Shown one piece after another: positions 23,437-40,586 of a DNA stretch of 64,000 nt. The notes below the pieces were generated by a model. The model was not told the origin of the DNA and did no database searches. It was given only the letters and a program-made list of their open reading frames with translations. Every line of letters starts with the position of its first letter. Position 1 is the stretch's first letter. The translations under genes and the position numbers were made by a program. Origin of the DNA: Pelagibacterales bacterium MED-G40 (GTDB lineage: Bacteria; Pseudomonadota; Alphaproteobacteria; Pelagibacterales; Pelagibacteraceae); the NCBI GenBank assembly GCA_002457515.1, contig NTJN01000003.1, positions 62,001-126,000 of the forward strand. The letters are read 5' to 3'.

Positions 23437-25293
23437 ATGGCTGAAAAACTAATTACAAAATCATTTGAAAGACTTCTTGATAAAGGAATCAATAGAGGTT
23501 TTATAACTTACGAAGAGTTAGGCAAGTCGCTTGGAAAAAGAGGCGGTTCTGTTGAAAATACTGAAAAGGCATTTGTTATCATAGCAGATAAAAGCGTCAC
23601 TCTTGTTGAAAAAAAATCTCAATTTCAAAGCAATAAAAAAAAGGAAGCTACCAATACTTCAGAAGATAAATCATCGGATAAAAGTGATGATCCTATTAGA
23701 ATGTATTTGAGAGAGATGGGTGGTGTAGAGCTACTTTCTCGAGAAGGTGAAATCGCCATAGCAAAAAGAATAGAGGCTGGGAAAGATGTTATGATAAACG
23801 CTTTAACACAAAGTCCTTTAATTGCAAAAAAAATCTATGAATGGAAAGAAAAATTAGAAAATAACGAACTTTTAGTAAGAGATATTATCGATATAGACTC
23901 TACATATGAAGATTTTGAAGAGTCTGAAAATGCAAATGAAGAAAAATCATCAAAGGAAGAAAAATCAAAGAAAAATAATGAGCAGGATGAAAAAAAGACC
24001 GAAGAGGCAAGTACTGAAGATGATGAATTTAATGTATCTCTGGCGAAGATGGAAGAAGAAATAAAGCCTAAAATTGTAAATATTATTGATACTCTTAGTA
24101 AAAATTATTCAAAACTTCAAAAATATCAGAGAGAGAAATTAAATTGTCTACTAGCTTCTAAAGATCTTTCAGTTTCTAAAAATAAAAACTTTAAAAGAAT
24201 ACAGTCAGTTTTAGTAGAAAATTTTAAAAGCTTACAGTTAGCTCCATATATTGTTGAGGAATTAGTACAATCTCATTACAAAGAAAATAAAAGAATAGTC
24301 TCTTTAGAAGGAGTTTTATTAAGATTAGCAGTAGATAATAAAATTAGTAGAGAAGAATTTTTAAAATATTATATAGGAAATGAAATAAACCCTAAATTTG
24401 AAAGTTTTTTAGCAGAAAATTCAACCTGGAAAGCTTTTTTTAAAAAATTTAAAAAAGATTTTAAAGAAATAAGAGATAGGTTAGTTGAGTTTAGTGAAAA
24501 AATTGGGCTATCAGTTGGTGAGTTTAAAAGATTAGTAAGCAGAATCCAAAAAGGAGAAAGAGAATCTCGCATCGCTAAAAAAGAAATGGTGGAAGCTAAT
24601 TTACGATTAGTAATTTCTATAGCAAAAAAATATACTAATAGGGGTCTTCAGTTTCTAGATTTAATTCAGGAGGGAAACATTGGATTAATGAAAGCCGTAG
24701 ATAAATTTGAATATCGTCGTGGTTATAAATTCAGTACATATGCGACGTGGTGGATTCGGCAAGCTATTACTAGATCTATAGCTGACCAAGCAAGAACAAT
24801 TAGGATACCTGTCCACATGATAGAAACAATAAATAAAATAGTTAGAACTCAAAGACAAATAATGAGTGAATTTGGAAGAGAACCAACTCCAGAAGAACTA
24901 GCTAAAAAATTAGCAATGCCTTTAGAAAAAGTTCGTAAAGTCTTAAAAATTGCTAAAGAGCCTGTTTCATTAGAAACTCCTGTAGGAGACGAAGAAGATA
25001 GTAGTTTGGGTGATTTTATTGAAGATAAAAATGCTTTACAGCCTTTGGACACTGCAATTCAATCAAATCTTAGTGAGTCTACAACTAAAATATTAGCTTC
25101 ATTAACACCTAGAGAAGAGAGAGTTTTAAGAATGAGATTTGGAATAGGTATGAATACAGACCATACTTTAGAAGAAGTTGGACTTCAGTTTTCAGTTACC
25201 AGAGAGAGAATAAGACAAATAGAGGCTAAAGCTTTAAGAAAACTTAAACACCCGAGTCGTTCTAAACAATTAAAAAGCTTCCTAGAGAAATAA
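23437..25293 (+). CDS. rpoD: RNA polymerase primary sigma factor RpoD (sigma70)
   Basis: A 618-residue housekeeping sigma factor. Region 1.1 is at the N-terminus ([19 protein letters not shown]), region 1.2 includes [20 protein letters not shown], and an acidic, low-complexity spacer runs around residues 165-200. Regions 2.1-2.4 ([40 protein letters not shown]), 3 ([13 protein letters not shown]) and 4 ([35 protein letters not shown]) are all present. It recognises -35/-10 promoters of the kind seen ahead of the tRNA, rnpB and mraZ in this window. It is the last core gene before the accessory island. Confidence 0.97.
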
Positions 25294-25327
25294 ATTATAC
25301 TGTTATAAAAGATTAAATATTTTTTAA

Positions 25328-25356
25328 TTGAAAAAATAATTAAAATTTGATAATAT
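25328..25356 (+). promoter_or_regulatory. Sigma70-type promoter for the leader RNA/island operon
   Basis: TTGAAA (25328-25333), 17-bp spacer, TAATAT (25351-25356). Transcription would begin around 25362-25364, leaving about 270 nt before the first ATG at 25631. The spacing is ideal and the hexamers are one or two changes from consensus. Confidence 0.6.
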
Positions 25357-25362
25357 GTTTTT

Positions 25363-25600
25363 AGGTAAGGTTTAAATGTTGTTGAAGGCAAGATATATAC
25401 ATGAACCTTACTGACCAGTGTATATTTCCTGCCTTCAGTAGTGCATTGCCGACCTTTTAAGAGATAGAACTAATTGTTTTATCTTAACTTAATTGGAATA
25501 GATGTACGCAATCTATAAATCTTTTTGCCTAAAACTAACAACTAAGAACGAAAGTTCTAAGGGGTAAAATATATGGTCAGTAAAATAGACAGATTTATCT
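25363..25600 (+). ncRNA. Candidate structured RNA or long structured 5' leader with a pseudoknot
   Basis: This stretch after rpoD has no convincing ORF but strong base-pairing potential. A hairpin pairs 25384-25390 (GAAGGCA) with 25430-25436 (TGCCTTC) and 25393-25400 with 25418-25425 (8 bp, one G-U). Its loop carries AACCTTAC (25404-25411), perfectly complementary to GTAAGGTT (25365-25372), which would form a pseudoknot. Further hairpins lie at 25461-25485 (9-bp stem), 25498-25516 (6-bp stem, ATAGAT/ATCTAT) and 25545-25558 (AGAAC-GAAA-GTTCT tetraloop). GGTCAGTAA at 25575-25583 can also pair with the loop (25408-25416), so two folds may compete. It matches no RNA family I can name; it could be an sRNA, a cis-regulatory leader or both. 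Confidence 0.5.
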
Positions 25601-25630
25601 TTTTTGAGCTTAACGTTCAGAAAGGTAAAT

Positions 25631-25900
25631 ATGAAGATCAAAAAATTAAGAAAAATAAAATCGCTCACAGATCACGAAAAGCTTATTAATTTAATAGCAG
25701 TTCAGGGCGAGAAAGACGTTGGTGAGTTGCTCAGTTCAATAGATAGAGTCTTTATTGAATTATTTAATCTTAAAGAGTCCGAACTTCCCTGGTTAAACAC
25801 TAATACTGACAAAGAGTGGGACGATTTCATGAGAAAATCACGCCTAGCTTTTTATCGTATTTATTTTGAATTAATTCAAAAAGGAAGGGTTCTTCATTAA
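25631..25900 (+). CDS. Hypothetical protein (89 residues)
   Basis: I do not recognise this family. From ATG at 25631, preceded by AAAGG at 25621-25625 with a 5-nt gap, it encodes 89 residues: a basic start (MKIKKLRKIKSL) then a helical, mixed-charge body (LINLIAVQGEKDVGELLSSI, ELPWLNTNTDKEWDDF, RLAFYRIYFELIQKG). No membrane segment or signal peptide is seen. The frame extends to a TTG at 25604 but the Shine-Dalgarno favours the ATG. Its stop overlaps the next ATG (TAATG), placing it first in a tightly packed plus-strand gene string. Confidence 0.6.
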   Translation: MKIKKLRKIKSLTDHEKLINLIAVQGEKDVGELLSSIDRVFIELFNLKESELPWLNTNTDKEWDDFMRKSRLAFYRIYFELIQKGRVLH

Positions 25901-26061
25901 TGGATAAAATAACAGAAATTAGAATAGAAGAGATTTTCGATGAAGAAAATGATCAACACTATTATTGGATTTACTATTATAAAAATGATGAAGCAAAAAT
26001 CATAGGTAAATCCTCAGTTAAACCACAATGCTACAAACAAATTGCGAGGTACATTAAATGA
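25900..26061 (+). CDS. Hypothetical small protein (53 residues)
   Basis: A short gene filling the gap between two other small genes. ATG at 25900 overlaps the previous stop by one base, and its TGA (26059-26061) overlaps the next ATG (26058) in an ATGA junction. The product starts MDKITEIRIEEIFDEEND, has an aromatic patch (HYYWIYYYKNDEAK), and ends KPQCYKQIARYIK. The fold is unknown; alternating charged and aromatic residues suggest a small beta-sheet. The exact stop/start overlaps on both sides are the main argument that it is translated. Confidence 0.55.
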   Translation: MDKITEIRIEEIFDEENDQHYYWIYYYKNDEAKIIGKSSVKPQCYKQIARYIK

Positions 26062-26330
26062 AAAACTATTTTAAAAATAAAATGAGAGATCGACTAACTT
26101 ACTGCCATGAGTGGAAGAATTCGGTAGATATTTATTTGGCTAATCAAGAAATAACTAAAAAAGCTGATGAAGAATACTATAAATCAAAGCCTTTACTTAA
26201 GTTGATTTTAAATATCTACTTTATACCCTATAATATACTTAGATTTTTTTTATATTTAAGAATGATTCATGAATACAAAAAAAATCAAGTTGAAATAAAA
26301 ATTCTTAATAGAGAAATTGGTGAAAAATAA
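26058..26330 (+). CDS. Hypothetical protein with one membrane-like hydrophobic segment
   Basis: This 90-residue protein is of unknown family. The N-terminal half is charged (KNYFKNKMRDRLTYCHEWKN); residues 45-68 are hydrophobic and aromatic (LLKLILNIYFIPYNILRFFL), enough for one membrane segment or an amphipathic membrane anchor, followed by a charged helical tail. It overlaps the 53-residue gene by 4 bp and the following nuclease gene by 11-14 bp, so it belongs to the same translational chain. No function can be assigned. Confidence 0.55.
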   Translation: MKNYFKNKMRDRLTYCHEWKNSVDIYLANQEITKKADEEYYKSKPLLKLILNIYFIPYNILRFFLYLRMIHEYKKNQVEIKILNREIGEK

Positions 26331-27834
26331 AAATTATAGCTTAACAAAAAGTAGTATTATAAGTGGTGACCAGTGTGAAAAAAAACTTTGGTTTGATATT
26401 AATGAACCCAAAAAATTTGAACAAAAAGCTAATTTTTTAAGAGGTTATCGCTTCGAAGATGAGGTCAGAAAAATTTATGCTAAAGATCAAAAAGTTTTAG
26501 ATTTATCGCCCAAAAAAGAAAAATGGATAAAACCTAAAGAAAGAACTGAACAAGCTATTAATTCTAAAGAAATAAATGTTATTTTTGAAGGTGTATTCAT
26601 TTTTTTAGATACTTATATAAGAACAGATATTTTAATTAGAAAAAATAAAGGATGGGAACTTTTAGAAATAAAGTCATCAGGAGAACAAAAAAATTATCAT
26701 ATAACAGATTTAGCAATTCAATCTTATATTCTTAAGAAGATGGGTATTAATTTAACTAGCGTTAAATTAATTCATATTAATAAAAATTTTATTTTTAAAA
26801 CTGAAGGAGATTATAAAGATTTACCTGTAGAGGTTGATGTTACTAGTAAAGTTGTTGAAAAAGAAAAAGAAATACCAGGTCTAATTAAAAAATTATTACC
26901 TATAACCAAAAAATCACCCTGTCCTAATATAAAAATGGGAGATCATTGCAAAAAACCTTTTGATTGTGATTATATAGATAAATGTAAACCTAAATCAAAT
27001 ATAATTTCTTATGAAATTTTGCCTGGAAGAATAAAAGGCACAAAACTAGAAAAACACTGTAAAGCAAATGGAATTAAAAAATTAGAAGATGTGCCTGCAG
27101 AACTATTAAACGAGAATCGAAAAATTATTCAAGACTGTCATAAAAAAAACATAACTTGGTTTGGTCCAAATCTAAACAACATCATTAAAGATTTAAGTTG
27201 GCCAATTTATTTTATGGACTTCGAAACAGTAATGCAGGGAGTTCCCAAAATAAAGGGAACAAAACCTTACATCCCTTTGCCTTTTCAGTGGTCGGTGCAC
27301 AAATGGTCATCCTTGGACAAAAAAATCAAGTTAAATGATGCAAATTCATTTTTAGATTTTTTGGATCAAAATATAGAAAGAAAATTTGCTGAAAGTCTCT
27401 TAAATGAACTAGGTGATGAAGGATCTATATTTATTCATTCTCCTTACGAAAAGAAAGTTTTAGATAGGTTAAAGAAAAAAGATAGCTGTAAAGATTTAGT
27501 AAATAAAATTGATAAATTAGACGCAAGAATATTGGATACTTTAGAAATTGTTAGAAAAGAATTTTATGATCCAAACATGAATGGTCAATATAAAATAAAA
27601 GTAATTAATAAAGTTATACCAAATAGCGATATTAATTATGAAAAGAAAGATAATATAGTAAGCGGTGAAGATGCTGAATTAGCTTGGTTTATTTACACAG
27701 ATCCTAAAACTCCTAAAGAAGAGAAAAAAAAACAAAAAAAACTTTTAATAGATTACTGCTCCAAAGATACATTTGCTGTATATTATTTGGTAAAATATTT
27801 AATGGAAAAGTCAAAAAAAAATAAAAAAAAATAA
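26320..27834 (+). CDS. DUF2779-type protein: Cas4/RecB-like nuclease plus DEDD-type exonuclease-like domain
   Basis: About 504 residues. The N-terminal part (LTKSSIISGDQCEKKLWFDI, then GWELLEIKSSGE) resembles the PD-(D/E)xK core of Cas4/RecB-like nucleases. A Cys cluster follows (CPNIKMGDHCKK, FDCDYIDKC) of the kind that binds an Fe-S cluster or zinc. The C-terminal part has YFMDFETVMQGVP, PFQWSVHKW and DYCSKDTFAVYYLVKYL, the DFE...YC-x-D pattern of DnaQ-like 3'-5' exonucleases. This arrangement is that of DUF2779 proteins, whose function is not established. GTG at 26320 is taken as start (TTG at 26317 is adjacent). It precedes the DUF2130-type gene by 10 bp. Confidence 0.75.
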   Translation: MKNKNYSLTKSSIISGDQCEKKLWFDINEPKKFEQKANFLRGYRFEDEVRKIYAKDQKVLDLSPKKEKWIKPKERTEQAINSKEINVIFEGVFIFLDTYIRTDILIRKNKGWELLEIKSSGEQKNYHITDLAIQSYILKKMGINLTSVKLIHINKNFIFKTEGDYKDLPVEVDVTSKVVEKEKEIPGLIKKLLPITKKSPCPNIKMGDHCKKPFDCDYIDKCKPKSNIISYEILPGRIKGTKLEKHCKANGIKKLEDVPAELLNENRKIIQDCHKKNITWFGPNLNNIIKDLSWPIYFMDFETVMQGVPKIKGTKPYIPLPFQWSVHKWSSLDKKIKLNDANSFLDFLDQNIERKFAESLLNELGDEGSIFIHSPYEKKVLDRLKKKDSCKDLVNKIDKLDARILDTLEIVRKEFYDPNMNGQYKIKVINKVIPNSDINYEKKDNIVSGEDAELAWFIYTDPKTPKEEKKKQKKLLIDYCSKDTFAVYYLVKYLMEKSKKNKKK

Positions 27835-27844
27835 GGAAAATTAA

Positions 27845-28918
27845 ATGACTCCAAAAATAACCTGTCCTTACTGCAATAAAGAGTTTCAAATGGAAGAAGG
27901 TCTTTCTATTCATTTAAAAAAAATTGAGGAAAAAAAAACTCAAGAAATTGAAAAAAAGCAAGAAGAGAAGATAAAATCTTTAGAAACTTCTAACAGAGAG
28001 AACCAAGACAAACTAAAATCCTTAGAAGATGCTAATAAGGAAAAAGATGAAAAACTAAAATCATCAAATGAACAAAAAGAAAAAGAATTAAAAGCTTTTG
28101 ATAAACAAAATAAAGAGCACTACAAAAGTCTTTTTGATGAAAGATTTAAAAGTGAATTAGAAAACCGAGATCAGCAAAATTCTGAAAAAGAAAAATTATG
28201 GAAATTAAAAGAAGAAAGATTGATTTTAACAATTGAGGATCTTACAAAAAAAGCAAAACAAGGGACCACCGTTGACCAAGGATCCTCTTCAGAGATGCAG
28301 TTAGGAGAATATTTAAAGGATTTATTTAAAGATAAAAAAGACAAAATTAATGAGTATGAAAAAGGTGTAGCTGGTGGGGATTGGTTACAAGAAGTTGTTG
28401 AGAATGATTTTACAATTGCAAAAATATTATATGAAAGAAAAAATACTAAAGCATGGAGCAATGGTTGGATAAAAAAACTACAAGATGATATGAAAGACTC
28501 TAAGTCAGATGTGGGTATCATTTTCACAAAATCGCTGCCAAAAGAATTTCCTAAAAACAAATTGTGGGATCACAAAGGAAATATTTTTATATGTAAATAT
28601 AATTTCATAGCACTTAATGCTTTAGCCTCTATGCAGAGATGGAATTTGGCAGAAAAAAATAAACAAGATGAATTTGGTACTAGTAATGTCATATCTGCTA
28701 CTAAATGGATTGAAAGCCCAATTATAACTAATATTTTAATGCAAAAAATAAATATATCTGAACAAAAAAATCAAAAATTTAAATTACTTAAAAAAAATTT
28801 AGAAGATGTAGAGAAGCTAGATGAAAGCTCAGATAATATTTTTAAAGAGTTGCTTGATGAAATAAATAAAATTGGAGTAGCAGCATTTATAGAAAAATGG
28901 AAAAAGAAAAAAAATTAA
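27845..28918 (+). CDS. DUF2130-type protein: zinc motif, coiled coil, nuclease-like domain
   Basis: A 357-residue protein in three parts. A short N-terminal zinc-binding motif (CPYCNKEF with a following His23) is followed by a highly charged coiled coil at about residues 25-115. The C-terminal domain has SSEMQLGEYLKDLFKDK, YEKGVAGGDWLQEV, ILYERKNTKAWSNGWIKKLQ and SDVGIIFTKSLP, as in DUF2130. The ExK within YERKNTK and the preceding acidic residues suggest a restriction-endonuclease-like PD-(D/E)xK site. Function is not established. It starts 10 bp after the DUF2779 gene; a 58-residue gene follows. Confidence 0.78.
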   Translation: MTPKITCPYCNKEFQMEEGLSIHLKKIEEKKTQEIEKKQEEKIKSLETSNRENQDKLKSLEDANKEKDEKLKSSNEQKEKELKAFDKQNKEHYKSLFDERFKSELENRDQQNSEKEKLWKLKEERLILTIEDLTKKAKQGTTVDQGSSSEMQLGEYLKDLFKDKKDKINEYEKGVAGGDWLQEVVENDFTIAKILYERKNTKAWSNGWIKKLQDDMKDSKSDVGIIFTKSLPKEFPKNKLWDHKGNIFICKYNFIALNALASMQRWNLAEKNKQDEFGTSNVISATKWIESPIITNILMQKINISEQKNQKFKLLKKNLEDVEKLDESSDNIFKELLDEINKIGVAAFIEKWKKKKN

Positions 28919-28925
28919 AAATAAT

Positions 28926-29102
28926 ATGGATAAAAAAGATAGAAATAAATGGACAAATAAATTTAGGGAAATGGGAAAGAAAAAAGGTTCCAGGCAAGAT
29001 TTTGTTAATCTTTACAAAGAAATGAAAAAAGAAAAAGATAATAAAAAAAATGATAGTTCTAAATCTGAAAATGATAAAAGCTGGAAAGATCTAATAGAAT
29101 AA
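28926..29102 (+). CDS. Hypothetical small basic protein (58 residues)
   Basis: A short ORF in the gap between the DUF2130-type gene and the M48 peptidase gene. ATG at 28926 lies 7 bp after the preceding stop, and TAA at 29100-29102 lies 17 bp before the next ATG. The product is rich in lysine, with MDKKDRNKWTNKFREMGKKK at the start, FVNLYKEMKKEKDNKK in the middle and KSWKDLIE at the end. The central part could be one amphipathic helix. No family is recognised; tight packing and same-strand context support it, but composition alone does not. Confidence 0.45.
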   Translation: MDKKDRNKWTNKFREMGKKKGSRQDFVNLYKEMKKEKDNKKNDSSKSENDKSWKDLIE

Positions 29103-29119
29103 AAAGTACTAAAATAAAA

Positions 29120-30250
29120 ATGAATTTTTTAGATAGATTTAGGTATACCTACGATGATTTGAATGAACTAGGAATTGTTCAAAATAATAAAAACGATACA
29201 AAAAATTTTAATAATCAAAACCTAAGAAACTTGCTATCAAGTTCAGTCAAAGTGAGTGAAAACTTATTTCCAAAGATTGCAAGTTCCATAGAAAAAGTTT
29301 TTAAAAGACTTGGTGTTAAAAATAACTTTAATTTCTTTATCACTGCAAATCATATTGAAACTCAAGCAGCTTGTGCAATGATGCCCCAAAGTTTAAATGC
29401 AGAAATAATTATTACCTCAAAAATGGTTGAGTTGTTAAATGCAGGTGAACTAGAGAGTGTTATTGCCCATGAGATTTCTCATTTTTATTATCAACACAGT
29501 CTTTATCCACCTATTCAAAAAGCAAGGACTAGAAATGAATATCTTAATTTTCTTAATTTAAGTAGGGCCGCAGAAATATCAGCTGATCGTGCTGGTTTAT
29601 TAGGCTCAGGGAGCATTGAAAATTCTCTTAGAGCAATGCTGAAGATATCTACAGGTCTTAGTGATGAGCATATATCTTTTAATTTTAGTTCTTATTTAGA
29701 TCAATTGAGAGAATTAAAAGAGTTACAAGGAAATAAAAACTTACTTTATGCTACTCATCCAACATTTCTTAATCGAATGCAGGCCTTGATATGGTTTTCA
29801 ATGAGCAATGAATACAACGAATTTTTTAAAACAGACAAGAAAGGTGTCTATGATTTGAAAGTGGTTGATAAGAAGATTGATGAAAGTATAAAAAAAGTAA
29901 CTGGAAATGAATTAGATAACTCTAATAAAGAAATAATTAATAAAGCTTTATTATGGGGCTCATTAAGTATTTATCTTGCAGATAAAAAATTTTCTAAAGA
30001 TGAACAAGAAAAATTCAAAAAGAGATTTGGAGAAAAAGCAGCGGTAAGTATAAAAAGTCTTTTGAATATATCAAAAATGTCTGTAGTAGAAAAAAGAATT
30101 GAAAATGCCTTTAACGAAGCCAAAATTTTGATGAAATCTGATAAAAAAAAAATAATATCTACCTTGAAAGAAATATTTGCAGAATCAGATAATCACAACA
30201 AGGATGCAAGTTCTATTTTAAAAAAATTAATCGATACGATTAAATTGTAG
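29120..30250 (+). CDS. Cytosolic M48-family metallopeptidase with TerB-like C-terminal segment
   Basis: A 376-residue zinc protease candidate. The zinc motif HEISH is at residues 117-121 inside ESVIAHEISHFYYQHS; the third ligand is Glu152 in the AAEISADRAGL block, as in M48 peptidases. Unlike HtpX, Oma1 or BepA there is no signal peptide and no obvious membrane segment, so it probably acts in the cytoplasm. The C-terminal hundred residues include IYLADKKFSKDEQEKFKKRF, similar to the acidic helical pattern of TerB/DjlA-type domains. It converges with the 879-residue PDZ/TerB/J-like gene (4 bp between stops). It may process substrates delivered by the neighbouring Hsp70; this is inference. Confidence 0.75.
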   Translation: MNFLDRFRYTYDDLNELGIVQNNKNDTKNFNNQNLRNLLSSSVKVSENLFPKIASSIEKVFKRLGVKNNFNFFITANHIETQAACAMMPQSLNAEIIITSKMVELLNAGELESVIAHEISHFYYQHSLYPPIQKARTRNEYLNFLNLSRAAEISADRAGLLGSGSIENSLRAMLKISTGLSDEHISFNFSSYLDQLRELKELQGNKNLLYATHPTFLNRMQALIWFSMSNEYNEFFKTDKKGVYDLKVVDKKIDESIKKVTGNELDNSNKEIINKALLWGSLSIYLADKKFSKDEQEKFKKRFGEKAAVSIKSLLNISKMSVVEKRIENAFNEAKILMKSDKKKIISTLKEIFAESDNHNKDASSILKKLIDTIKL

Positions 30251-30254
30251 TAAA

Positions 30255-32894
30255 TTATTTATTATATTGAGATCTTAAACTTGCAGCCAAATCTCTCATT
30301 TCTTTAGCTCTTTCTCTAATCATTTTATCAGTATTATTTGTTAAAGCATTCCATCTACTATATTCTTTTCTTAAAATTTTAAGTTTCTCGTTTTTAGTCA
30401 TATCTTTATCAATCCCAAACACACTTTCTTCTACCCCTTCACCAAAATCAACAAATTTTACAGATGAAGTTTTTTGTTTTTTAATTTCTTGATATTTCTC
30501 TTTATTTAATTCAAGTTCTTTTGAAACTTTGTCTATGAATTTATTTTCTTTACTATTAAAAGTTTCATCTTTTGTTGCTAGATTAAGTAAAAAATCTATT
30601 ATTTCATACCTCTCGTGTATTACAGAATTTTTCTTTAAGTCTTTTAAAATATTGTCTAAATTTAATTTTTCATTCAAAGATTTTTCATAATTTCTTTTCA
30701 AACTAAGTATTTTATGTATTTTTCCCTCAACAGCATAATCACCATATTTCACTGAAGCATAATCACCATATCTCACTGAGTCTTTAATTTTTTCTAAATT
30801 AGCTTTCTGATTATTTTTGTCATCTTGGTTTAAAGCTAAGCTTAAAGCAATTTTAAGATCGTTATATTTACGTCTATTAATTTCTAAGTATCCTGGCTGT
30901 TTATATTCAACTTCTATTTCAGATGATGAATAAGATAAAATATCTGTATAATCATTGTACTCATCAAATCCGTCCGAATAACTATCTAAAAAATACTCTT
31001 CTGCTCTGAAATTAGGCTTATCGTTAGAAATAAATCTTCCGTTGTTTTCATCAAATTTTTGATTATCGGTACAAATAAAAGTTCTAAAAGATAGTTTTCT
31101 TTTTCCATATTTTGGTATTTGTAATTTTGAGTAAGGAAAGGCTAATTCGCTAGGGTGAGATCCATAAGATTCTAATTCTTTGGTTTGAACTAAAATTCCG
31201 TTACCTTCTGACCATGACAAATCCTCTGTTTTAACTACATGACTATTATTGAGGAAATATTGTTCTGTGTCTTCACCATTGTCTAGAGTCTTAAAGTACT
31301 TGTCCTCATCTAAATCCGTTACATCATAAATATAAATTTTAAGATAAATTTTTTGCCCTCTAATAATATGATTTTCTATTTCTTCCTCGTTAGGTAAATT
31401 ATTTAATTTAACCACAAATGATTCTTTTCCAGCTATTTTCTTTTTATTAACACTGGTTGAAATATAAATTTTATCTTGGTAATCGGAATCATAATCATAT
31501 CCATCATCTTCTGGTTCATCTTGAAGATCCAATTTTTTAATTTCTTTTATTCTCTCAATATTAAAATCAGGATATTCTAAAAAAAAGCTTTTACAAAAAT
31601 CATCTACTGCTAGTTTTACTTTTGCTTTATTAAATTTATATTTTGATTCAAACCAATATTCTAAATTTTTTGCAATATCTGCAAAGCCTCGAGCTGATTC
31701 AGTAGAGAGTTCTGCTTTTTTTTTATTTGAAAATTTCCAAAACTTCTTATCTGATTCATATTTGATAAAAATATTTTTTTTTTTATCAACCATTTCATTA
31801 AAAAAAAAGTTTAAGGATGCCTCTGAAATTTCATCGACAAATACTTCCTTTTTTTTATCTTTGACAGAAATTAATTTTTCAAAGTTTTTAATATTTGCAG
31901 GAACATCTTTAACCCAATCTCCGCCAACAGCTTTTCCTGTTAAAATATATGAATAACAACACTCCTTTTTTAAATTTAGACTTCTTAATTTTGAAATAAT
32001 TTTTGAATTAAAAATCAAACTAAAAAAATTAAGTTTGAAATTGATATCTTTGTATTCAGGTTTTAATAAGCTGGTAAGTAGTTTGGCATCTTTATTTTTC
32101 CAATCTTTTATATAGTCAGAATTATAAGTATATCTTGCATCAGAAAAACGTTCTGCAATCGTCTCTAATTTCATAATATCTTCTTTTCTTTTATTCCAAT
32201 CATCATGATTACGTCCGTAATCTGTTAAAACCCATTCTTTAAATAATAATGAACCAGCTTTTTTTAAATAATGATCATCAATTGATTTTTTACTGATCGC
32301 TACAGCCTGCACAGCATTAATAAGTTTTAGTTTTACTTTAATTTCACCTAGTTGTTTTTTTTTGATCTTAAATTCTACATTATTCCCTGGTTTATATTTT
32401 GAAGTTATTTTTCCAAAATCAAATTCTGATGAAATTTTTTCTGAATCTATTGATAATAAGATATCCCCATCTTCTACTGAATTATCAAAATCTGGATATT
32501 CAAAAGCATTTTTTTCAATTAATACTAAATTATTTTTCACTTTTACATGACAAGGCCAATTTATAGAATTTTTTTGAAAATTATGAAAAGAGATTGTTTT
32601 TATTTTAACTTTTTCAATTTTATTTGATCTTTTTACTTCAAATAATACTTCATTTCCCCAATCTATTTTATTTGTCTCAAAATCTAAATCACCAATTGTT
32701 TTAATTTCAATGTTATTAATGGATAATATTAGGTCTCCTACTAATAATTTTTTATCCGAAATACTTCCTGCTTGGACAAAATTTATTAGAGGTTTCGACG
32801 TATTTCTATGTTCGTTTCTAGCATCAAATCCAACATCAAAACGAACAATGTGTTGAAGCCTCTGTACAAATTTTCTTTTTTTTTTTACTGCCAC
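30255..32894 (-). CDS. Large protein with PDZ-like repeats, TerB-like domain and HPD-less J-like C-terminus
   Basis: An 879-residue protein without signal peptide or membrane segments. The N-terminal 200 residues contain two PDZ-like units (VGDLILSINNIEIKTIGDLD, EDGDILLSIDSEKI). A long middle region is unrecognised, with acidic tyrosine-rich stretches and an 8-residue tandem repeat at residues 706-721. Residues about 757-822 (FLLNLATKDETFNSKENKFI) resemble a TerB-like helical domain. The last 57 residues look like a J-domain: VFGIDKDMTKNEKLKILRKE, then Y-S-R-W-N, and a final helix ending AASLRSQY. The HPD tripeptide needed to stimulate Hsp70 reads NNT. The gene is 6 bp downstream of hsp70, so it is the likely co-chaperone. 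Overall architecture is unfamiliar to me. Confidence 0.65.
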   Translation of the reverse strand: MAVKKKRKFVQRLQHIVRFDVGFDARNEHRNTSKPLINFVQAGSISDKKLLVGDLILSINNIEIKTIGDLDFETNKIDWGNEVLFEVKRSNKIEKVKIKTISFHNFQKNSINWPCHVKVKNNLVLIEKNAFEYPDFDNSVEDGDILLSIDSEKISSEFDFGKITSKYKPGNNVEFKIKKKQLGEIKVKLKLINAVQAVAISKKSIDDHYLKKAGSLLFKEWVLTDYGRNHDDWNKRKEDIMKLETIAERFSDARYTYNSDYIKDWKNKDAKLLTSLLKPEYKDINFKLNFFSLIFNSKIISKLRSLNLKKECCYSYILTGKAVGGDWVKDVPANIKNFEKLISVKDKKKEVFVDEISEASLNFFFNEMVDKKKNIFIKYESDKKFWKFSNKKKAELSTESARGFADIAKNLEYWFESKYKFNKAKVKLAVDDFCKSFFLEYPDFNIERIKEIKKLDLQDEPEDDGYDYDSDYQDKIYISTSVNKKKIAGKESFVVKLNNLPNEEEIENHIIRGQKIYLKIYIYDVTDLDEDKYFKTLDNGEDTEQYFLNNSHVVKTEDLSWSEGNGILVQTKELESYGSHPSELAFPYSKLQIPKYGKRKLSFRTFICTDNQKFDENNGRFISNDKPNFRAEEYFLDSYSDGFDEYNDYTDILSYSSSEIEVEYKQPGYLEINRRKYNDLKIALSLALNQDDKNNQKANLEKIKDSVRYGDYASVKYGDYAVEGKIHKILSLKRNYEKSLNEKLNLDNILKDLKKNSVIHERYEIIDFLLNLATKDETFNSKENKFIDKVSKELELNKEKYQEIKKQKTSSVKFVDFGEGVEESVFGIDKDMTKNEKLKILRKEYSRWNALTNNTDKMIRERAKEMRDLAASLRSQYNK
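30732..30779 (-). repeat. 24-bp tandem duplication inside the PDZ/TerB/J-like gene
   Basis: Two adjacent 24-bp copies (30732-30755 and 30756-30779) differ at one position. They encode SVRYGDYA and SVKYGDYA in the 879-residue protein. The frame is preserved. Confidence 0.85.
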
Positions 32895-32900
32895 AAATAT

Positions 32901-34448
32901 CTACTCAATTACTATATGTTCGATAGCTTCATAGTTTTTTCTTAAATCTTCCGCAGACTCTGGTCTAATAGACACTTCATATTTTTCCTTTGTTGCCTCA
33001 TCCTCAAAAATACAGTGAAGTTTTCCAGATGTGTCATACTTGTAGGTTACATTGATAGGTCTACCTTTAGGCTTTTTGTCGGGAAATTTTAATTCACCTT
33101 GGTGAATAATATTTACAAATTCTCTATTTTTTTCTCTTCCTTCACTTTGAGTAATATCAATCGAGATAGATTCTTGATCATCATAGAGAGTCACTAATCT
33201 TGAACTTTTCGTTGCTGGCAAAGCGGTGTCGCGATCTATCAAAATTAAATTACTAGTAACTTGTCTATTCAAAACAGGGTCGTCTTCTTGAACTAACGTT
33301 CCTAAATAAAAATTACAAACATCTTGAAGTTTAACATTTGAAATTGCTTTTTTTTGTGCCTCATTTAAATTTTTCTTTGATTTTAAACCTGCATAAATTG
33401 CAGCACCTGCGGCTACAGCCTCATCAACGTTTACACCTTTCAATGGAGGCTTTTTCATAACCTGTTCAATAGTTTTTGTTATAATTGGTATTCTAGTTGA
33501 TCCACCAACTAGTAAAGTATGACTAATATTTTCGGCTTTTAATCCACTGCCATCAAGAGCTTCTTCCATAAGCATTTTAAGTTTTTCAATGTGCGTTTGC
33601 ATTGATTGTTCAAATTCTGCTCTTGTAATTTCTATTTCCTTTACACCATTAGGTCCATCGACTGATTCTATTTGTTTATCTCTAACTGACAAAACTCTTT
33701 TTACTTGTTCAGCTATCTCCATATACTTAGAATAATTATTATCGATATCTAATTCATTTCCAGTTAGTTTTTTATATTTTTCATTTATTAAATTAACCAA
33801 TTCTTTGTCAAAGTCTTTACCACCAAGCCACTTATCACCTCTACTAGTTATTACTTCAACTTCTTCACCTTGCACTTCGCAAACAGTTACATCAAATGTT
33901 CCACCCCCTAAATCAAATACTAAAATTTTACCTGTAATTTTTTTTACATTTGGCAGACTTGCATAATAACAAGCAGCAGCAGTTGGTTCATTGATTAAAC
34001 TTATAACTTCAATTCCTGCCATTTTTGCTGCATCTAAAGTGGCCACTCTTGCTTTTTCAGCAAATAATGCTGGAACAGTTATAACTGCTTTTTTAACATC
34101 AGATGCATAGCCTTTAAGTTTCGATAATATAAAAGAAGAAATTTGAGCTGGAGAGTAATAATCTTTATTTTTTTCATCTTTATCTACCCATTTTCCCTCA
34201 TCAATTGAGTAAACCACATCATTTTCCATTTGCCTTTTAGTTTCAGTAACAACTTGTTTTGGAGCTGTTTCCAAAGCATCAAGAGCCTTATCACCAACAA
34301 TCATATTTTGATCTTTTATATAAACAGAACTTGCTGTGATTTTTTTATTATTATCCGTAGATGCTAATACCTCTGGTGTACCTAAATCATCTAATTGTGC
34401 AATCGCACTATAAGTAGTTCCTAGATCTATGCCAATAATTTTACTCAT
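32901..34448 (-). CDS. Hsp70-family chaperone without the C-terminal lid
   Basis: A 515-residue Hsp70 homologue from ATG at 34448. The actin-like ATPase domain has IGIDLGTTYSAIA, INEPTAAACYYA, VFDLGGGTFDVTV and LLVGGSTRIP. The substrate-binding beta domain is present but the protein ends near IRPESAEDLRKNYEAIEHIV, about 120 residues short of DnaK, so the alpha-helical lid is missing. This is therefore not the housekeeping DnaK but a specialised paralogue. It is followed after 6 bp by the PDZ/TerB/J-like gene, and divergent from the LRR-like gene across 54 bp. The track frame extends to TTG at 34460; the ATG fits the Hsp70 N-terminus. Confidence 0.9.
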   Translation of the reverse strand: MSKIIGIDLGTTYSAIAQLDDLGTPEVLASTDNNKKITASSVYIKDQNMIVGDKALDALETAPKQVVTETKRQMENDVVYSIDEGKWVDKDEKNKDYYSPAQISSFILSKLKGYASDVKKAVITVPALFAEKARVATLDAAKMAGIEVISLINEPTAAACYYASLPNVKKITGKILVFDLGGGTFDVTVCEVQGEEVEVITSRGDKWLGGKDFDKELVNLINEKYKKLTGNELDIDNNYSKYMEIAEQVKRVLSVRDKQIESVDGPNGVKEIEITRAEFEQSMQTHIEKLKMLMEEALDGSGLKAENISHTLLVGGSTRIPIITKTIEQVMKKPPLKGVNVDEAVAAGAAIYAGLKSKKNLNEAQKKAISNVKLQDVCNFYLGTLVQEDDPVLNRQVTSNLILIDRDTALPATKSSRLVTLYDDQESISIDITQSEGREKNREFVNIIHQGELKFPDKKPKGRPINVTYKYDTSGKLHCIFEDEATKEKYEVSIRPESAEDLRKNYEAIEHIVIE

Positions 34449-34477
34449 TTTATATTTCAAATTTCGTCAAAATAATA

Positions 34478-34492
34478 ATATCCTACGGATAT
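34478..34492. promoter_or_regulatory. Inverted repeat in the hsp70/LRR divergent promoter region
   Basis: ATATCC (34478-34483), TAC, GGATAT (34487-34492): a perfect 6-bp inverted repeat with a 3-bp centre, sitting in the 54 bp between the two divergent start codons. It could be an operator for a dimeric regulator controlling both genes, or a small hairpin in the LRR leader. No regulator is encoded next to it. Confidence 0.4.
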
Positions 34493-34502
34493 AAGGTAAC
34501 TC

Positions 34503-37500
34503 ATGAATAATGAAGATACAAACAAATTATCAAATTTAGACATATTAAATACCAAGTGTAATTTTAAAATATTAGAATTAGAGGGTTTAAATTTAGATGA
34601 TGATTGGTCAAAATTATCTAAAGTTAAAAATTTAGAAACACTAATACTTAAAGATAGTTACATAGATTTTAAGAAATTTTATAATGCAATTTTTTCCTTA
34701 AAAAAATTAAATAAATTAAAATTAAATCATTATTGTTATTTCAATAAATCTAAAAATGATAAGTTTGAAAAAAATTTAAAACTTTCTTCTTTAAAAGAAT
34801 TTTGTCTAGAATTTCCAAGATCGGATGAACCAGATTTTGAAATAAATACTTATTTGCATAAAAGTTATGAAAACAAACATAATTCAATCACCGATGTCCC
34901 AAATAGCCATACTATGTTTCCTAACTTAGAGGTCATTAAATTATTAAATTATGAAACTTATAAGAAAAGAATACTTGATGAAGATGAAGATAATAAAAAA
35001 ATACATAAAGAAATTTATTGGAATACAAAATTAAATGATCTTAAACGCTTTAAAAAATTAAAGAATATAGTCATCGATAATGGAAATGTGAGCGATTTAT
35101 ATATAAACGGATTAGATCATTTCATAAAAATCTTAGAAAAACAAAAAATTAATCTTACTATAAATAATATAAATAATACGTCAAAATTAAATCTTGACTT
35201 TAAAACTGTAAATTTTTTTTGTGGTTATAAAGGTGACAAAACTAATCTTTGTTTTAAATTAGATAATGAATTTTTAAATATTTTGAAAGAAAATAATATA
35301 ATTATTGATAAAAATGTTTTTAATATCAATGAATTTCATTATTACAAAGACCCCTATAAGTATGACAAACCTTATGTAATCAACAAAAATAAAAATTATG
35401 AAGAAGTTATCAAATCAAATCCAACTTGTTTTATCTTTAAATCATGTTTTAGATTTTTACATATTAGTAATTCTGGATCTAGTAGAGGACAAAAATTAGA
35501 TGCAATGGAACATCTATTTAAAAATCAAAACAAGTTGGAAAAAATTATTTTTGATTTATCTAGAAATGATAAATATGACGGTGATGAAGATTGGCACGCT
35601 AATCAAATAAGTTTTTTAGTAAAATTTATATATGAATTTAGATTAAATAATAAAGATACCCAAATATTTATTTATCATCCTGAAATTAAAAAGTTACTCA
35701 ATGAAAAAGATAGTTCAGACAGTTTCAAAATTCATTTAATTTATCTTTATAATTCTCTTAAAATTAACAATTTAAAAGATAAACTCACGATATTAGGCGC
35801 GAACGATGAACAATTAGATTTATTAACGGATAAATTTATAAATGAAAATGTTAATCAGGTGGTAGTTATAGATGATATTTTTTATAATAAATCTAGCTAT
35901 TTTCCAGATAAAACATTTATAAATAATGATCAACTAGATGATTTAAAAAGTCATTATCCAAAATATATAAATGATGATGATAAAAAATGGTCTAAATTAA
36001 ATCATTTATTTAAATATGTATACGAAGAGATAATAAGAATAATTGACTTTTCAGATAGTGACTTTAAGCCAGATAAAAATAGTTTAATTCTAGTAATCAA
36101 AAAAACTGCAATAGACAAAATTCCAAATATAAATTTAAAAAAGATATATATTTATTCTGGTGCTTCATTACATCATGTTGCCCAACAAATGAATCATACT
36201 GAAAAAAATTGGAATGCAAAAAAAATTGTAGGAAAGTTAGTAAATAATAATGAAGAGGGAATAAATAAGATAAAAGATAAGTTATTTTCTGTTGCAACAA
36301 ATATAAGCGAAAGCTTTGTTTCATCGAATGACTTTAAAGGCAGTAATTTATCTAAAGAAGACTTTTTGAAACCTGCAGAGTTCAATGAGATAGTAGAGAA
36401 TACAAATATTAAACATGAAAAAATTAAAAGCTTAACGCATTGTTGGATTGAGGGTGTCAACCCATGGCAAGAAAAATACATAAAATTAAGTGAATTTGAT
36501 AAATTTATACCTATTGATAACTTAGAGTATTTAAAACTAAGCGATTGTTTACAAAGTGAAAATTTAGACTTACCTCATTTTCCAAAATTAAAAATTCTTA
36601 AAATGAAATTTTTTCAAAATCATCACAGAAAATCTTTAGATAAGGTAACATTATCAAAATTTGATAACTGCCCTAATCTTCAAAAAATTGAAATAAGTGA
36701 TTTGGAAAATTTCTATAATAAAGGATTATTTAAACATACACTAGGTTTTTCAGGATATTCGACTAATTTACATTATATCGATACTTGGTCTTATATAAAT
36801 GTAGATCTTTCAAAACTTCACCAATTAAAAAAGTTAGAGCAAGTAACTATTACTTCAATAACAGCTTCTGATTTAAAGGAGCTTAAATCTGTTGAAAATT
36901 TAAAAAAGATTAATCTGGGGGTTATGCATTTTAACAAAGATGATTATAAAAGTACTTATGAACCTCAAAAAGAAATTTGTGATCAAGATTTGTCTTTTTT
37001 TAAAAATTGCAAAAAAATTGAAGATATTAATTTAAGACTTGGAGACCCAAATTATAAAGGTGAATCATTTGGGAATATATCATCTAGTTATAAAGGAAAT
37101 GGTGAATTTATAAATTTTATAAATCATAAAATTAAAAAACTAAAATTAAATGTAAATCTGGATATTAAAAACCAAGCTACTATTCAAGATATAATAAATA
37201 ATATTACCAACAGGTTTTTATCATTAGAGGAACTTAATTTAAGTTTTAGTATTGCTGCTAGAGCAAAATATTTTGACTCTGAAAAAGGATATACTCAAAA
37301 AATCGATACACAAATTATAGATTTTAAGAAAATTGCTAAGTTAAAAAAACTAAAAAATCTTAATATACAGCATTATGGTGAGTCCCTTTATATTCCGTTT
37401 AAATCAGTAAATTTTGATGAGGTAATCAAACTAAAATTGATTAAGGATTTAGCCATAATGTGGAATTCAGTGAGTTTTTCTGAATTCAGGAAAGCCAGAA

Positions 37501-37724
37501 TTGCTTTTAAAAAAGAAAAATATGACAATCCTATATACTACGATGAATACATAGAGGATTATGAAGAAGATAGTGATTACCGAAAAAATTGGAATAGAAT
37601 GGAGCACATTAATACGGAAGATTGGGACTTTTATAGCTTAGAATCAAAATATCTAGATCTTGAAAAAAGGGAAAATAAAAAAAAATATGAAAAGAAACTG
37701 ATTATTAAAAAAAAAAATAGTTAA
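34503..37724 (+). CDS. Giant leucine-rich-repeat-like protein
   Basis: A 1073-residue protein with LRR-like units at both ends. N-terminal examples are FKILELEGLNLDDDWSKL and NLETLILKDSYIDFKKF; C-terminal examples are NLEYLKLSDCLQSENLDL, KLKILKMKF, NLQKIEISDL, LSLEELNLSFSIA and KLKNLNIQHYGESLYIP. The repeats are irregular and asparagine/lysine-rich. The central part (about residues 320-660) is not obviously LRR and contains DEDWHANQISFLVKFIYEF and LKKIYIYSGASLHHVAQQM; I recognise no enzyme motif. No signal peptide is visible, so it is probably intracellular. It is divergent from hsp70, with which it shares its upstream region. LRRs usually bind proteins; a recognition or scaffold role is inference. 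Confidence 0.6.
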   Translation: MNNEDTNKLSNLDILNTKCNFKILELEGLNLDDDWSKLSKVKNLETLILKDSYIDFKKFYNAIFSLKKLNKLKLNHYCYFNKSKNDKFEKNLKLSSLKEFCLEFPRSDEPDFEINTYLHKSYENKHNSITDVPNSHTMFPNLEVIKLLNYETYKKRILDEDEDNKKIHKEIYWNTKLNDLKRFKKLKNIVIDNGNVSDLYINGLDHFIKILEKQKINLTINNINNTSKLNLDFKTVNFFCGYKGDKTNLCFKLDNEFLNILKENNIIIDKNVFNINEFHYYKDPYKYDKPYVINKNKNYEEVIKSNPTCFIFKSCFRFLHISNSGSSRGQKLDAMEHLFKNQNKLEKIIFDLSRNDKYDGDEDWHANQISFLVKFIYEFRLNNKDTQIFIYHPEIKKLLNEKDSSDSFKIHLIYLYNSLKINNLKDKLTILGANDEQLDLLTDKFINENVNQVVVIDDIFYNKSSYFPDKTFINNDQLDDLKSHYPKYINDDDKKWSKLNHLFKYVYEEIIRIIDFSDSDFKPDKNSLILVIKKTAIDKIPNINLKKIYIYSGASLHHVAQQMNHTEKNWNAKKIVGKLVNNNEEGINKIKDKLFSVATNISESFVSSNDFKGSNLSKEDFLKPAEFNEIVENTNIKHEKIKSLTHCWIEGVNPWQEKYIKLSEFDKFIPIDNLEYLKLSDCLQSENLDLPHFPKLKILKMKFFQNHHRKSLDKVTLSKFDNCPNLQKIEISDLENFYNKGLFKHTLGFSGYSTNLHYIDTWSYINVDLSKLHQLKKLEQVTITSITASDLKELKSVENLKKINLGVMHFNKDDYKSTYEPQKEICDQDLSFFKNCKKIEDINLRLGDPNYKGESFGNISSSYKGNGEFINFINHKIKKLKLNVNLDIKNQATIQDIINNITNRFLSLEELNLSFSIAARAKYFDSEKGYTQKIDTQIIDFKKIAKLKKLKNLNIQHYGESLYIPFKSVNFDEVIKLKLIKDLAIMWNSVSFSEFRKARIAFKKEKYDNPIYYDEYIEDYEEDSDYRKNWNRMEHINTEDWDFYSLESKYLDLEKRENKKKYEKKLIIKKKNS

Positions 37725-37768
37725 AAAATAAATCTTTTATAAATCAGAATTATGCCAAATTAATACAG

Positions 37769-37786
37769 CACTTATAGCTATAAGTG
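37769..37786. repeat. 18-bp perfect palindrome at the right end of the island
   Basis: CACTTATAG followed directly by CTATAAGTG, 45 bp after the LRR-like gene stop. As RNA it could form a 7-bp stem with an AGCT loop, but no T-run follows, so it is not a standard intrinsic terminator. It may be a protein-binding site or a processing hairpin. Confidence 0.6.
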
Positions 37787-37820
37787 TTCACAAATAAAAC
37801 TTAAGATTGAAATTGATGAT

Positions 37821-37849
37821 TTGAGTTTTGATAAAAAGGCTTGTATATA
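37821..37849 (+). promoter_or_regulatory. Sigma70-type promoter of the tRNA gene
   Basis: TTGAGT (37821-37826), 17-bp spacer, TATATA (37844-37849). The expected start site near 37856 is 8 bp before the mature tRNA 5' end. Confidence 0.6.
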
Positions 37850-37863
37850 TTGAAATTATCAAG

Positions 37864-37940
37864 GGGCCTGTAGCTCAGCTGGTTAGAGCAGTACACTCAT
37901 AATGTATTGGTCCCAGGTTCGAATCCTGGCGGGCCCACCA
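37864..37940 (+). tRNA. tRNA with CAU anticodon (elongator tRNA-Met or tRNA-Ile2)
   Basis: A complete 77-nt cloverleaf. The 7-bp acceptor stem pairs GGGCCTG (37864-37870) with CGGGCCC, followed by discriminator A and an encoded CCA (37938-37940). The D arm is AGCTCAGCTGGTTAGAGC, the anticodon loop is CTCATAA with CAT at 37898-37900, and the T arm is CCAGG-TTCGAAT-CCTGG. The anticodon stem (GTACA/TGTAT) lacks the three G-C pairs of initiators, so it is not tRNA-fMet. Sequence alone does not tell me whether the C34 is lysidinylated (Ile2). The 3' end directly abuts the mlaC stop. Confidence 0.95.
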
Positions 37941-40168: not shown

Positions 40169-40526
40169 TGCCAGATAGATGGATAATCGCTATTAATTAT
40201 ATTAATAGAGGAAAGTCCGGGCTCCGTAAGGACACAGTGCCAGTTAATGGCTGGCGAGGGTGACCTCAGGGACAGTGCCACAGAAAATAAACCGCCTAAT
40301 CAAGGCAAGGGTGAAACGGTGAGGTAAGAGCTCACCGGTTTTTTGGTAACAAAAAACGCATGGCAAACCCCACTGGGAGCAAGGTTAAATAGAGAAGACA
40401 TTGCATTTTATGCTAAAAACAGTCTTTAGTTAGTCTTCTGGGTTAACCGCTTGAGCTTAGGTGTGAACTTAAGCCTAGAGAAATGATATCTTCAATGACA
40501 GAACCCGGCTTATAGTCTGTCTGGCA
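40169..40526 (+). ncRNA. rnpB: RNase P RNA component
   Basis: About 358 nt. It has the 5' conserved core AGAGGAAAGTCCGGGCTCC, an ACAGTGCCA segment, the CAGGGACAGTGCCACAGAAA region, AAGGGTGAAACGGTGAGGTA, the TGGCAAACCCCACTGGGAGC block, and the 3' core ACAGAACCCGGCTTA. The P1 helix pairs TGCCAGATAGA at the 5' end with TCTGTCTGGCA at the 3' end (one G-U). This is the catalytic RNA that removes tRNA 5' leaders. Exact mature ends are estimated from P1. It precedes the division cluster, with its own promoter. Confidence 0.95.
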
Positions 40527-40586
40527 AATCTCGCTTAAATCTTAAAATGTTCTGTTTTTGTATCACTTATGGCAAAAACTATTATA

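What the first reader, a model, noticed from the sequence alone, without database searches (positions are those of the whole stretch)
29120..37724. Candidate undescribed system: lid-less Hsp70, PDZ/TerB/J-like partner, cytosolic M48 protease and giant LRR-like protein
Seen: a 515-residue Hsp70 lacking the alpha-helical lid, followed after 6 bp by an 879-residue protein with PDZ-like, TerB-like and J-like segments; divergently an LRR-like protein of 1073 residues; convergently a soluble M48 protease whose C-terminus also looks TerB-like. Known: Hsp70s act with J-proteins, TerB-like domains occur next to J-domains in DjlA-type proteins, M48 enzymes degrade or process proteins. Inference: these four form a specialised chaperone-protease surveillance or stress (possibly anti-phage) system in which the LRR protein recognises targets, Hsp70 and its J-like partner remodel them and M48 cleaves them.
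Basis: partly seen in the sequence, partly recalled or inferred. Interest (0 to 1): 0.75.

Follow-up and report, generated by a model that had tools for sequence, protein, structure and literature searches.

The report
Mobile lidless-Hsp70 chaperone–protease module
A tiny-genome bacterium, probably a marine SAR11-type organism, carries on a genomic island a rarely found set of genes for a stripped-down Hsp70 chaperone, its own unusual helper protein, a protein-cutting enzyme and a large recognition-type protein; the same set recurs in related genomes at different chromosomal sites, so it looks like one undescribed machine, though what it protects against is unknown.

Summary
The genes are real and belong together. 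In 297 genomes of the order, the TerB/J-like protein and this M48 subfamily occur in exactly the same 8 genomes. A ninth locus came from the family search. Hsp70 sits beside them wherever the contig reaches. The large LRR-like protein occurs full-length in only four of these loci, all in one clade, in two gene arrangements and at two chromosomal sites.

The Hsp70 keeps the ATPase residues but ends before the lid. DnaK R167, which contacts the J-domain HPD motif, is Ser or Glu in all eight Hsp70s. The partner's J-like tail lacks HPD in all nine proteins. This suggests a private, re-engineered chaperone pair. Four partners are short and DjlA-like (membrane helix, TerB, J-like tail).

Here the module lies on a 12.6-kb island between rpoD and tRNA-Met; the site is empty in 7 of 13 same-genus genomes.

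Weak points: the J-like and LRR calls rest on weak matches, TerB-likeness of the M48 C-terminus was not recovered, and anti-phage function is untested. Best reading: a mobile chaperone–protease module for triage of abnormal or foreign proteins.

The parts
25294..37863 (.). genomic island that carries the module, between rpoD and tRNA-Met
   Evidence: in 7 of 13 same-genus genomes rpoD ends within about 50 bp of the tRNA (empty site); none of the 8 island ORFs has a homolog at those sites
29120..30250 (+). soluble M48 metalloprotease, 376 aa; zinc site HEISH/EISADR intact; ~130-residue C-terminal extension of unassigned fold
   Evidence: Pfam M48 in 9/9 relatives; motifs; max 19-residue hydropathy 0.86, no membrane segment
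30255..32894 (-). 879-aa partner protein: two PDZ domains, linker region, TerB, C-terminal J-like tail
   Evidence: Pfam PDZ_2 and TerB; TerB in 9/9 relatives
32598..32807 (-). first PDZ domain (residues 30-99)
   Evidence: PDZ_2 E=1.2e-11 for the protein, best stretch
32355..32498 (-). second PDZ-like stretch (about residues 133-180)
   Evidence: second PDZ_2 stretch; DegS PDZ match 133-180, E=0.09
30480..30701 (-). TerB domain, matched part (residues 732-805)
   Evidence: PF05099 E=6.3e-6
30258..30419 (-). J-like tail (about residues 826-879) without HPD
   Evidence: hhalign to J domains P=0.003, probability 10%; HPD absent in 9/9
32901..34448 (-). lidless Hsp70, 515 aa from ATG (a TTG start at 34460 gives 519)
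   Evidence: PF00012 E=1.9e-89; ATPase residues kept, R167 replaced by Ser, SBD-alpha absent
34503..37724 (+). large LRR-like protein, 1073 aa, divergent from hsp70
   Evidence: sub-threshold LRR_14 in 3/4 relatives; beside the module in 4 loci, all in one clade
37864..37940 (+). tRNA-Met (CAT), right border of the island
   Evidence: ARAGORN, Rfam tRNA
23437..25293 (+). rpoD (sigma-70), left border of the island
   Evidence: Pfam sigma-70 regions 1.1-4; 84-88% identical beside the same site in 13 relatives

Best explanation
A mobile, self-contained chaperone–protease module. SHOWN by comparative sequence analysis: a lidless Hsp70 with an intact ATPase site, a TerB/J-like partner and a soluble M48 protease are inherited together; in most loci they overlap or abut as one operon; four loci also have a membrane-anchored GrpE-like gene, and one clade (type I, including the window) has a large LRR-like protein. 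INFERRED: the Hsp70 binds exposed hydrophobic stretches through its beta substrate-binding domain and, lacking a lid, releases them quickly. The partner protein is its dedicated co-chaperone and scaffold. It docks by a changed J-domain contact (HPD lost on one side, R167 lost on the other), so the pair should not cross-talk with the housekeeping DnaK/DnaJ. It is anchored in the membrane in type II, and targeted by PDZ domains in the window-like type I loci. The GrpE-like protein (or the host GrpE where it is missing) exchanges nucleotide. Clients held by the complex are cut by M48, and in type I the LRR-like protein helps choose clients. The likely use is triage of abnormal or foreign proteins, as an accessory stress or defence trait.
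For: Identical presence of TerB-J and M48 in 8 of 297 order genomes, plus a ninth locus from the family search; gene spacing of -7 to +6 bp between hsp70, terB-J and M48; three separate gene trees all give the same grouping of loci and the concatenated tree supports type I at 99%; GrpE profile matches 4/4 small upstream proteins, best E=1.4e-8, each with an N-terminal membrane helix; N-terminal membrane helix in the four short TerB-J proteins (hydropathy 2.1-2.5); ATPase residues D8, T11, K70, E171, D194, T199, D201 conserved wherever sequence is present, R167 to S/E in 8/8, linker Asp393 kept, HPD absent in 9/9; the R167-D35 contact is reported, with DnaK R167H suppressing DnaJ D35N (PMC5519331); protease zinc site intact in 9/9; full-length LRR-like protein in 4 genomes, all carrying the module.
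Against: No physical interaction or activity is shown. The J-like assignment is weak. GrpE-like is absent from the window genome and from L032. M48 is convergent, not co-directional, in the window and L031, so its expression can be uncoupled. A distant relative of the M48 (27% identity) stands without Hsp70 or TerB on a short Bdellovibrionales contig. Module-bearing genomes are few and most are from one genus.
Confidence: 0.55

Rival explanations
1. Anti-phage guard system: the LRR-like protein or the chaperone complex senses a phage protein or infection-induced misfolding, and this unleashes the M48 protease on host or phage proteins, stopping phage growth.
For: Patchy presence on variable islands with decoupled histories; LRR-like and TerB-J proteins diverge faster than the Hsp70 (39% and 38% versus 73% identity between window and L033); nuclease-type genes on the same island (DUF2779/Cas4-like and DUF2130). 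Precedents: host DnaJ is required for phage sensing by bNACHT25 (PMC12169576); Hsp70-like proteins are parts of CoCoNuT restriction systems (PMC11090510).
Against: No significant PADLOC match for any of the four proteins. The island site also takes clearly non-defence cargo such as glycosyltransferase- and sulfotransferase-like genes (read from sequence). Type II loci lack the LRR-like protein.
Confidence: 0.35
2. Ssz1-like regulatory Hsp70: the lidless Hsp70 does not cycle as a chaperone; it forms a stable complex with the TerB/J-like protein and works as an ATP-sensing scaffold that controls the M48 protease.
For: Yeast Ssz1 lacks the lid, forms a stable pair with a J-domain protein and does not hydrolyse ATP (PMC10191838). 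Here too the lid is absent, the linker is partly polar (V-x-L-x-D for VLLLD) and the HPD/R167 contact is lost on both sides.
Against: All tested catalytic ATPase residues and linker Asp393 are conserved and the beta substrate-binding domain is intact; four loci carry their own GrpE-like exchange factor, which a non-cycling Hsp70 would not need.
Confidence: 0.2
3. Coincidence of a variable island: the genes are unrelated cargo that happen to lie side by side.
For: The window genes lie in a hypervariable site whose content turns over.
Against: Same genes together at three different chromosomal sites with different neighbours, identical presence of the two diagnostic genes in 297 genomes, overlapping reading frames, matching trees.
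Confidence: 0.04

Closest known systems
DjlA (E. coli membrane co-chaperone) with DnaK and GrpE
   Same: Short TerB-J proteins have the DjlA layout: one N-terminal membrane helix, TerB, C-terminal J-like tail; an Hsp70 and a GrpE-like protein go with them (DjlA layout in PMC11709261)
   Different: No HPD motif; the Hsp70 and GrpE-like genes are dedicated and adjacent; an M48 protease is always present; the window version has PDZ domains and no membrane helix
Ssz1-Zuo1 (ribosome-associated complex)
   Same: An Hsp70 without lid and with altered linker, paired with a particular J-type partner (PMC10191838)
   Different: Zuo1 keeps HPD; Ssz1 does not hydrolyse ATP whereas the ATPase residues are kept here; no protease, TerB or GrpE-like partner
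E. coli HscC-DjlC pair
   Same: A specialised Hsp70 encoded close to a co-chaperone gene
   Different: HscC keeps R167 and has 85 residues beyond DnaK position 505 versus 17-18 here; it is a separate long branch in the tree
Hsp70-like CnuD/CnuCD of CoCoNuT type IV restriction systems
   Same: Hsp70 NBD/SBD unit inside a multi-gene accessory system (PMC11090510)
   Different: No McrB-type GTPase here (no match); catalytic residues intact here, whereas CnuD is predicted there to hydrolyse ATP very poorly at best
HtpX-type M48 proteases
   Same: Same catalytic motif and weak NCBIfam matches to HtpX models
   Different: No membrane segments, far below HtpX cut-offs, own C-terminal extension, genetically tied to Hsp70 and TerB-J

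Membership tests
Hsp70 (DnaK family) | NBD with catalytic ATPase residues | tested here: met
   D8, T11, K70, E171, D194, T199, D201 conserved in all members with sequence there; PF00012 E=1.9e-89
Hsp70 (DnaK family) | beta substrate-binding domain | tested here: met
   aligned through to about DnaK position 505, hydrophobic pocket position 436 I/L
Hsp70 (DnaK family) | alpha-helical lid (SBD-alpha) | tested here: not met
   17-18 residues after DnaK 505 versus 134 in DnaK; hence 'lidless Hsp70', not a canonical DnaK
J-domain protein | HPD motif | tested here: not met
   absent in 9/9
J-domain protein | J fold by profile or structure | tested here: inconclusive
   no Pfam DnaJ match; hhalign P=0.003, probability 10%; single-sequence model pLDDT 42
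DjlA | membrane helix + TerB + C-terminal functional J domain | tested here: not met
   TerB 9/9 and N-terminal helix in the four short members, but no HPD and no membrane helix in the window protein
TerB | Pfam TerB profile | tested here: met
   9/9 members, best E=1.4e-14; window 26.9 bits against cut-off 24.4
TerB (in the M48 C-terminus) | similarity to TerB profile | tested here: not met
   hhalign 2.8% probability; 1/9 members, E=0.13
M48 peptidase | HExxH plus downstream Glu | tested here: met
   HExxH and EIS[AS]DR in 9/9
GrpE | Pfam GrpE profile | tested here: met
   4/4 small upstream proteins of related loci, best E=1.4e-8; none in the window genome
leucine-rich repeat protein | LRR profile or periodicity | tested here: inconclusive
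   LRR_14 below cut-off in 3/4, KDM2B chains E=0.03-0.04, motif count not above shuffles
known anti-phage system | match to PADLOC models | tested here: not met
   no significant match for the four proteins; library of 2023
known anti-phage system | protection against phage | not testable with these tools
   needs a plaque assay

The most novel reading that the evidence does not exclude
A new class of accessory immune or stress machine in which an orthogonal, lidless Hsp70 with its own HPD-free J-like scaffold and, in some loci, its own membrane GrpE delivers recognised foreign or damaged proteins to a dedicated M48 protease, with an LRR-like protein as exchangeable recogniser: a chaperone-run, ATP-powered protein-surveillance system carried as mobile cargo.
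Probability: 0.3. Interest if true: 0.85.

Novelty: new variant of a known kind. Interest (0 to 1): 0.62.

Why it matters
If right, it is a complete Hsp70 machine that has been cut loose from the housekeeping network: it brings its own partner, in some loci its own exchange factor, and a protease, and moves between genomes of under 1.5 Mb in which extra genes are costly. It offers a natural test of whether an Hsp70 and a J-like protein can work without the HPD-R167 contact, usually treated as universal, and of whether a chaperone can serve as the sensor or feeder of a bacterial immune protease.

Tried and rejected
Relatives outside the order: no convincing TerB-J relative in 398 phylum genomes (only short weak TerB matches), no module Hsp70 in 230 class genomes, no M48 in 239 phylum genomes, no TerB-J match in phage and plasmid records, no relatives in the viral contig scans with M48, Hsp70, TerB-J and LRR profiles; Hsp70 matches on plasmids and phages were at most 36% identical and, where annotated, DnaK. 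Considered and rejected: the window Hsp70 as a truncated copy of the housekeeping dnaK (a separate 639-aa dnaK exists, 40% identity; module Hsp70s form a 100% clade on a long branch). Other LRR-like hits in the order (G392, G363, G043, G305) are different proteins with a different small partner in most and no Hsp70 nearby. No direct repeats that would mark integration ends were evident. Promoter and terminator scans were not above chance. Paper searches found no description of this gene set; the library holds open-access papers only.
Full report
WHAT IS THERE. All four reading frames are at the stated coordinates. The M48 protein (29120-30250 +) has an intact zinc site and no membrane segment. 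The 879-residue protein (30255-32894 -) has two PDZ stretches and a TerB domain. The Hsp70 (32901-34448 -, 515 aa from ATG) ends 18 residues after DnaK position 505, where DnaK has 134 more, so the lid is missing. The 1073-residue protein (34503-37724 +) is LRR-like only by weak matches.

SURROUNDINGS. The genes sit on an island of 12.6 kb (25294-37863) between rpoD and tRNA-Met. Of 13 genomes of the same genus in which I read this site, 7 have nothing between rpoD and the tRNA, 6 have other cargo, and none has any of the eight island ORFs. The island also carries a DUF2779/Cas4-like protein and a DUF2130 protein. The genome has 0.91 Mb in 8 contigs at 85% completeness. That it is a SAR11-type bacterium is my inference from size, low G+C and gene content; it was not tested.

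RELATED LOCI. A family search and then a profile of the TerB/J-like C-terminus found eight further loci, in seven genomes of the same family and one of a sister family (loci L008, L009, L010, L030-L034; L034 from G226 is the sister-family one, cut by the contig end). In 297 order genomes TerB-J (strong matches, E below 1e-30) and this M48 subfamily each occur in exactly the same 8 genomes. If the two were independent, a perfect match would be about 1 in 10^15; relatedness of the genomes makes the true figure less extreme. Hsp70 is directly next to TerB-J in every locus whose contig reaches that far. Full-length LRR-like proteins occur in 4 of the 297 genomes, all among the 8. They lie divergent from hsp70 or grpE in three loci and downstream of M48 in the fourth (L033), and at two chromosomal sites, rpoD/tRNA-Met in the window and a thioredoxin site in the others. 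The tandem genes overlap or abut (-7 to +6 bp).

A MISSED COMPONENT. In L008, L030, L031 and L033 the gene just before hsp70 encodes a 202-238-residue protein with one N-terminal membrane helix; all four match Pfam GrpE (best E=1.4e-8). It is absent from the window genome and from L032; the L009 and L010 contigs start too late to tell at their locus.

TWO TYPES. Trees from M48, Hsp70 and TerB-J group the loci in the same way. Type I (window, L031, L033, L032; 99% in the concatenated tree) has the LRR-like protein and long TerB-J proteins: PDZ domains in three, an N-terminal hydrophobic helix in L032. Type II (L008, L009, L030, L010) has no LRR-like protein in the DNA available and short TerB-J proteins with a membrane helix, the layout of DjlA. 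Module Hsp70s form one clade (100%) far from DnaK and HscC. DnaK differs by at most 19% within genus g4 in these genomes, yet module Hsp70s of that genus are as little as 53% identical, while the window (genus g1) and L031 (g4) share 83%: the module has moved or been lost independently of the species tree.

THE PAIR. All tested ATPase residues are conserved. DnaK R167, reported to contact D35 of the J-domain HPD motif, with R167H suppressing D35N (PMC5519331), is Ser or Glu in 8/8 module Hsp70s. The J-like tail aligns with true J domains in register (P=0.003, probability only 10%) and carries Asn-x-(Gln/Leu) where HPD would be in eight of nine, and no HPD in any. Loss on both sides fits a changed docking mode, but rests on a weak J assignment and on few sequences.

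MECHANISM. Shown: constant genetic association, operon structure, conserved active sites. Inferred: a dedicated Hsp70 cycle scaffolded by the TerB-J protein, at the membrane in type II, with clients passed to M48 and, in type I, chosen with help of the LRR-like protein. The purpose is open. Patchy presence, island location and faster divergence of the LRR-like and TerB-J proteins fit defence; so would an accessory stress function. Precedents for chaperones in phage sensing or restriction exist (PMC12169576; PMC11090510), but no significant PADLOC match was found.

LIMITS. Structure prediction was uninformative. The M48 C-terminus as TerB is not supported. The class and phylum samples found no further members, so the module appears confined to this order at this depth.

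Noticed in passing
window 26317-27834 and 27845-28918: DUF2779/Cas4-like protein and DUF2130 protein on the same island. A DUF2130 gene also lies directly upstream of the GrpE-like gene in L033 (5024-6163), 29% identical over 292 residues.
   Followed up: partly
L031 11609-12631, L010 4082-5068: RmuC-family genes lie next to the M48 gene in these two loci; RmuC genes also occur elsewhere in L032 and L033, near an SbcB-like exonuclease gene, so they may be site-specific neighbours.
   Followed up: partly
L060 8524-10599, L061 9164-11263, L062 9637-11724: At the same tRNA-Met/MlaC hotspot other genomes carry a ~700-aa protein with LRR-like repeats; in L060 and L061 it follows a ~200-aa small protein gene. 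L059 has a 1431-aa relative with such a partner elsewhere. A possible separate two-gene system.
   Followed up: no
L032 10494-13856, L033 15088-18462, L061 12558-15944: ~1120-residue proteins beside island loci; the L032 one has RNase_H_2 and AAA helicase domains (Dna2/Cas4-like layout).
   Followed up: no
L035 622-1911: Bdellovibrionales contig with a 429-aa relative of the M48 protein (27% identity), without Hsp70 or TerB on the 6.8-kb contig: the M48 subfamily is wider than the module.
   Followed up: partly
L034 8544-10774: A divergent member in the sister family (M48 about 31% identical to the window's); contig ends before any Hsp70, so whether the module is complete there is unknown.
   Followed up: no
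window 30732-30779: 24-base tandem duplication inside the TerB region (SVRYGDYA/SVKYGDYA), not present in the relatives.
   Followed up: no
L077 and L078 (genome G349): The housekeeping dnaK of the genome with the closest module is split into two pieces with stops, probably an assembly or sequencing error.
   Followed up: no
window 40171-40528: RNase P RNA (class A) between the amidase-like gene and the mraZ-like gene, a normal housekeeping gene.
   Followed up: no
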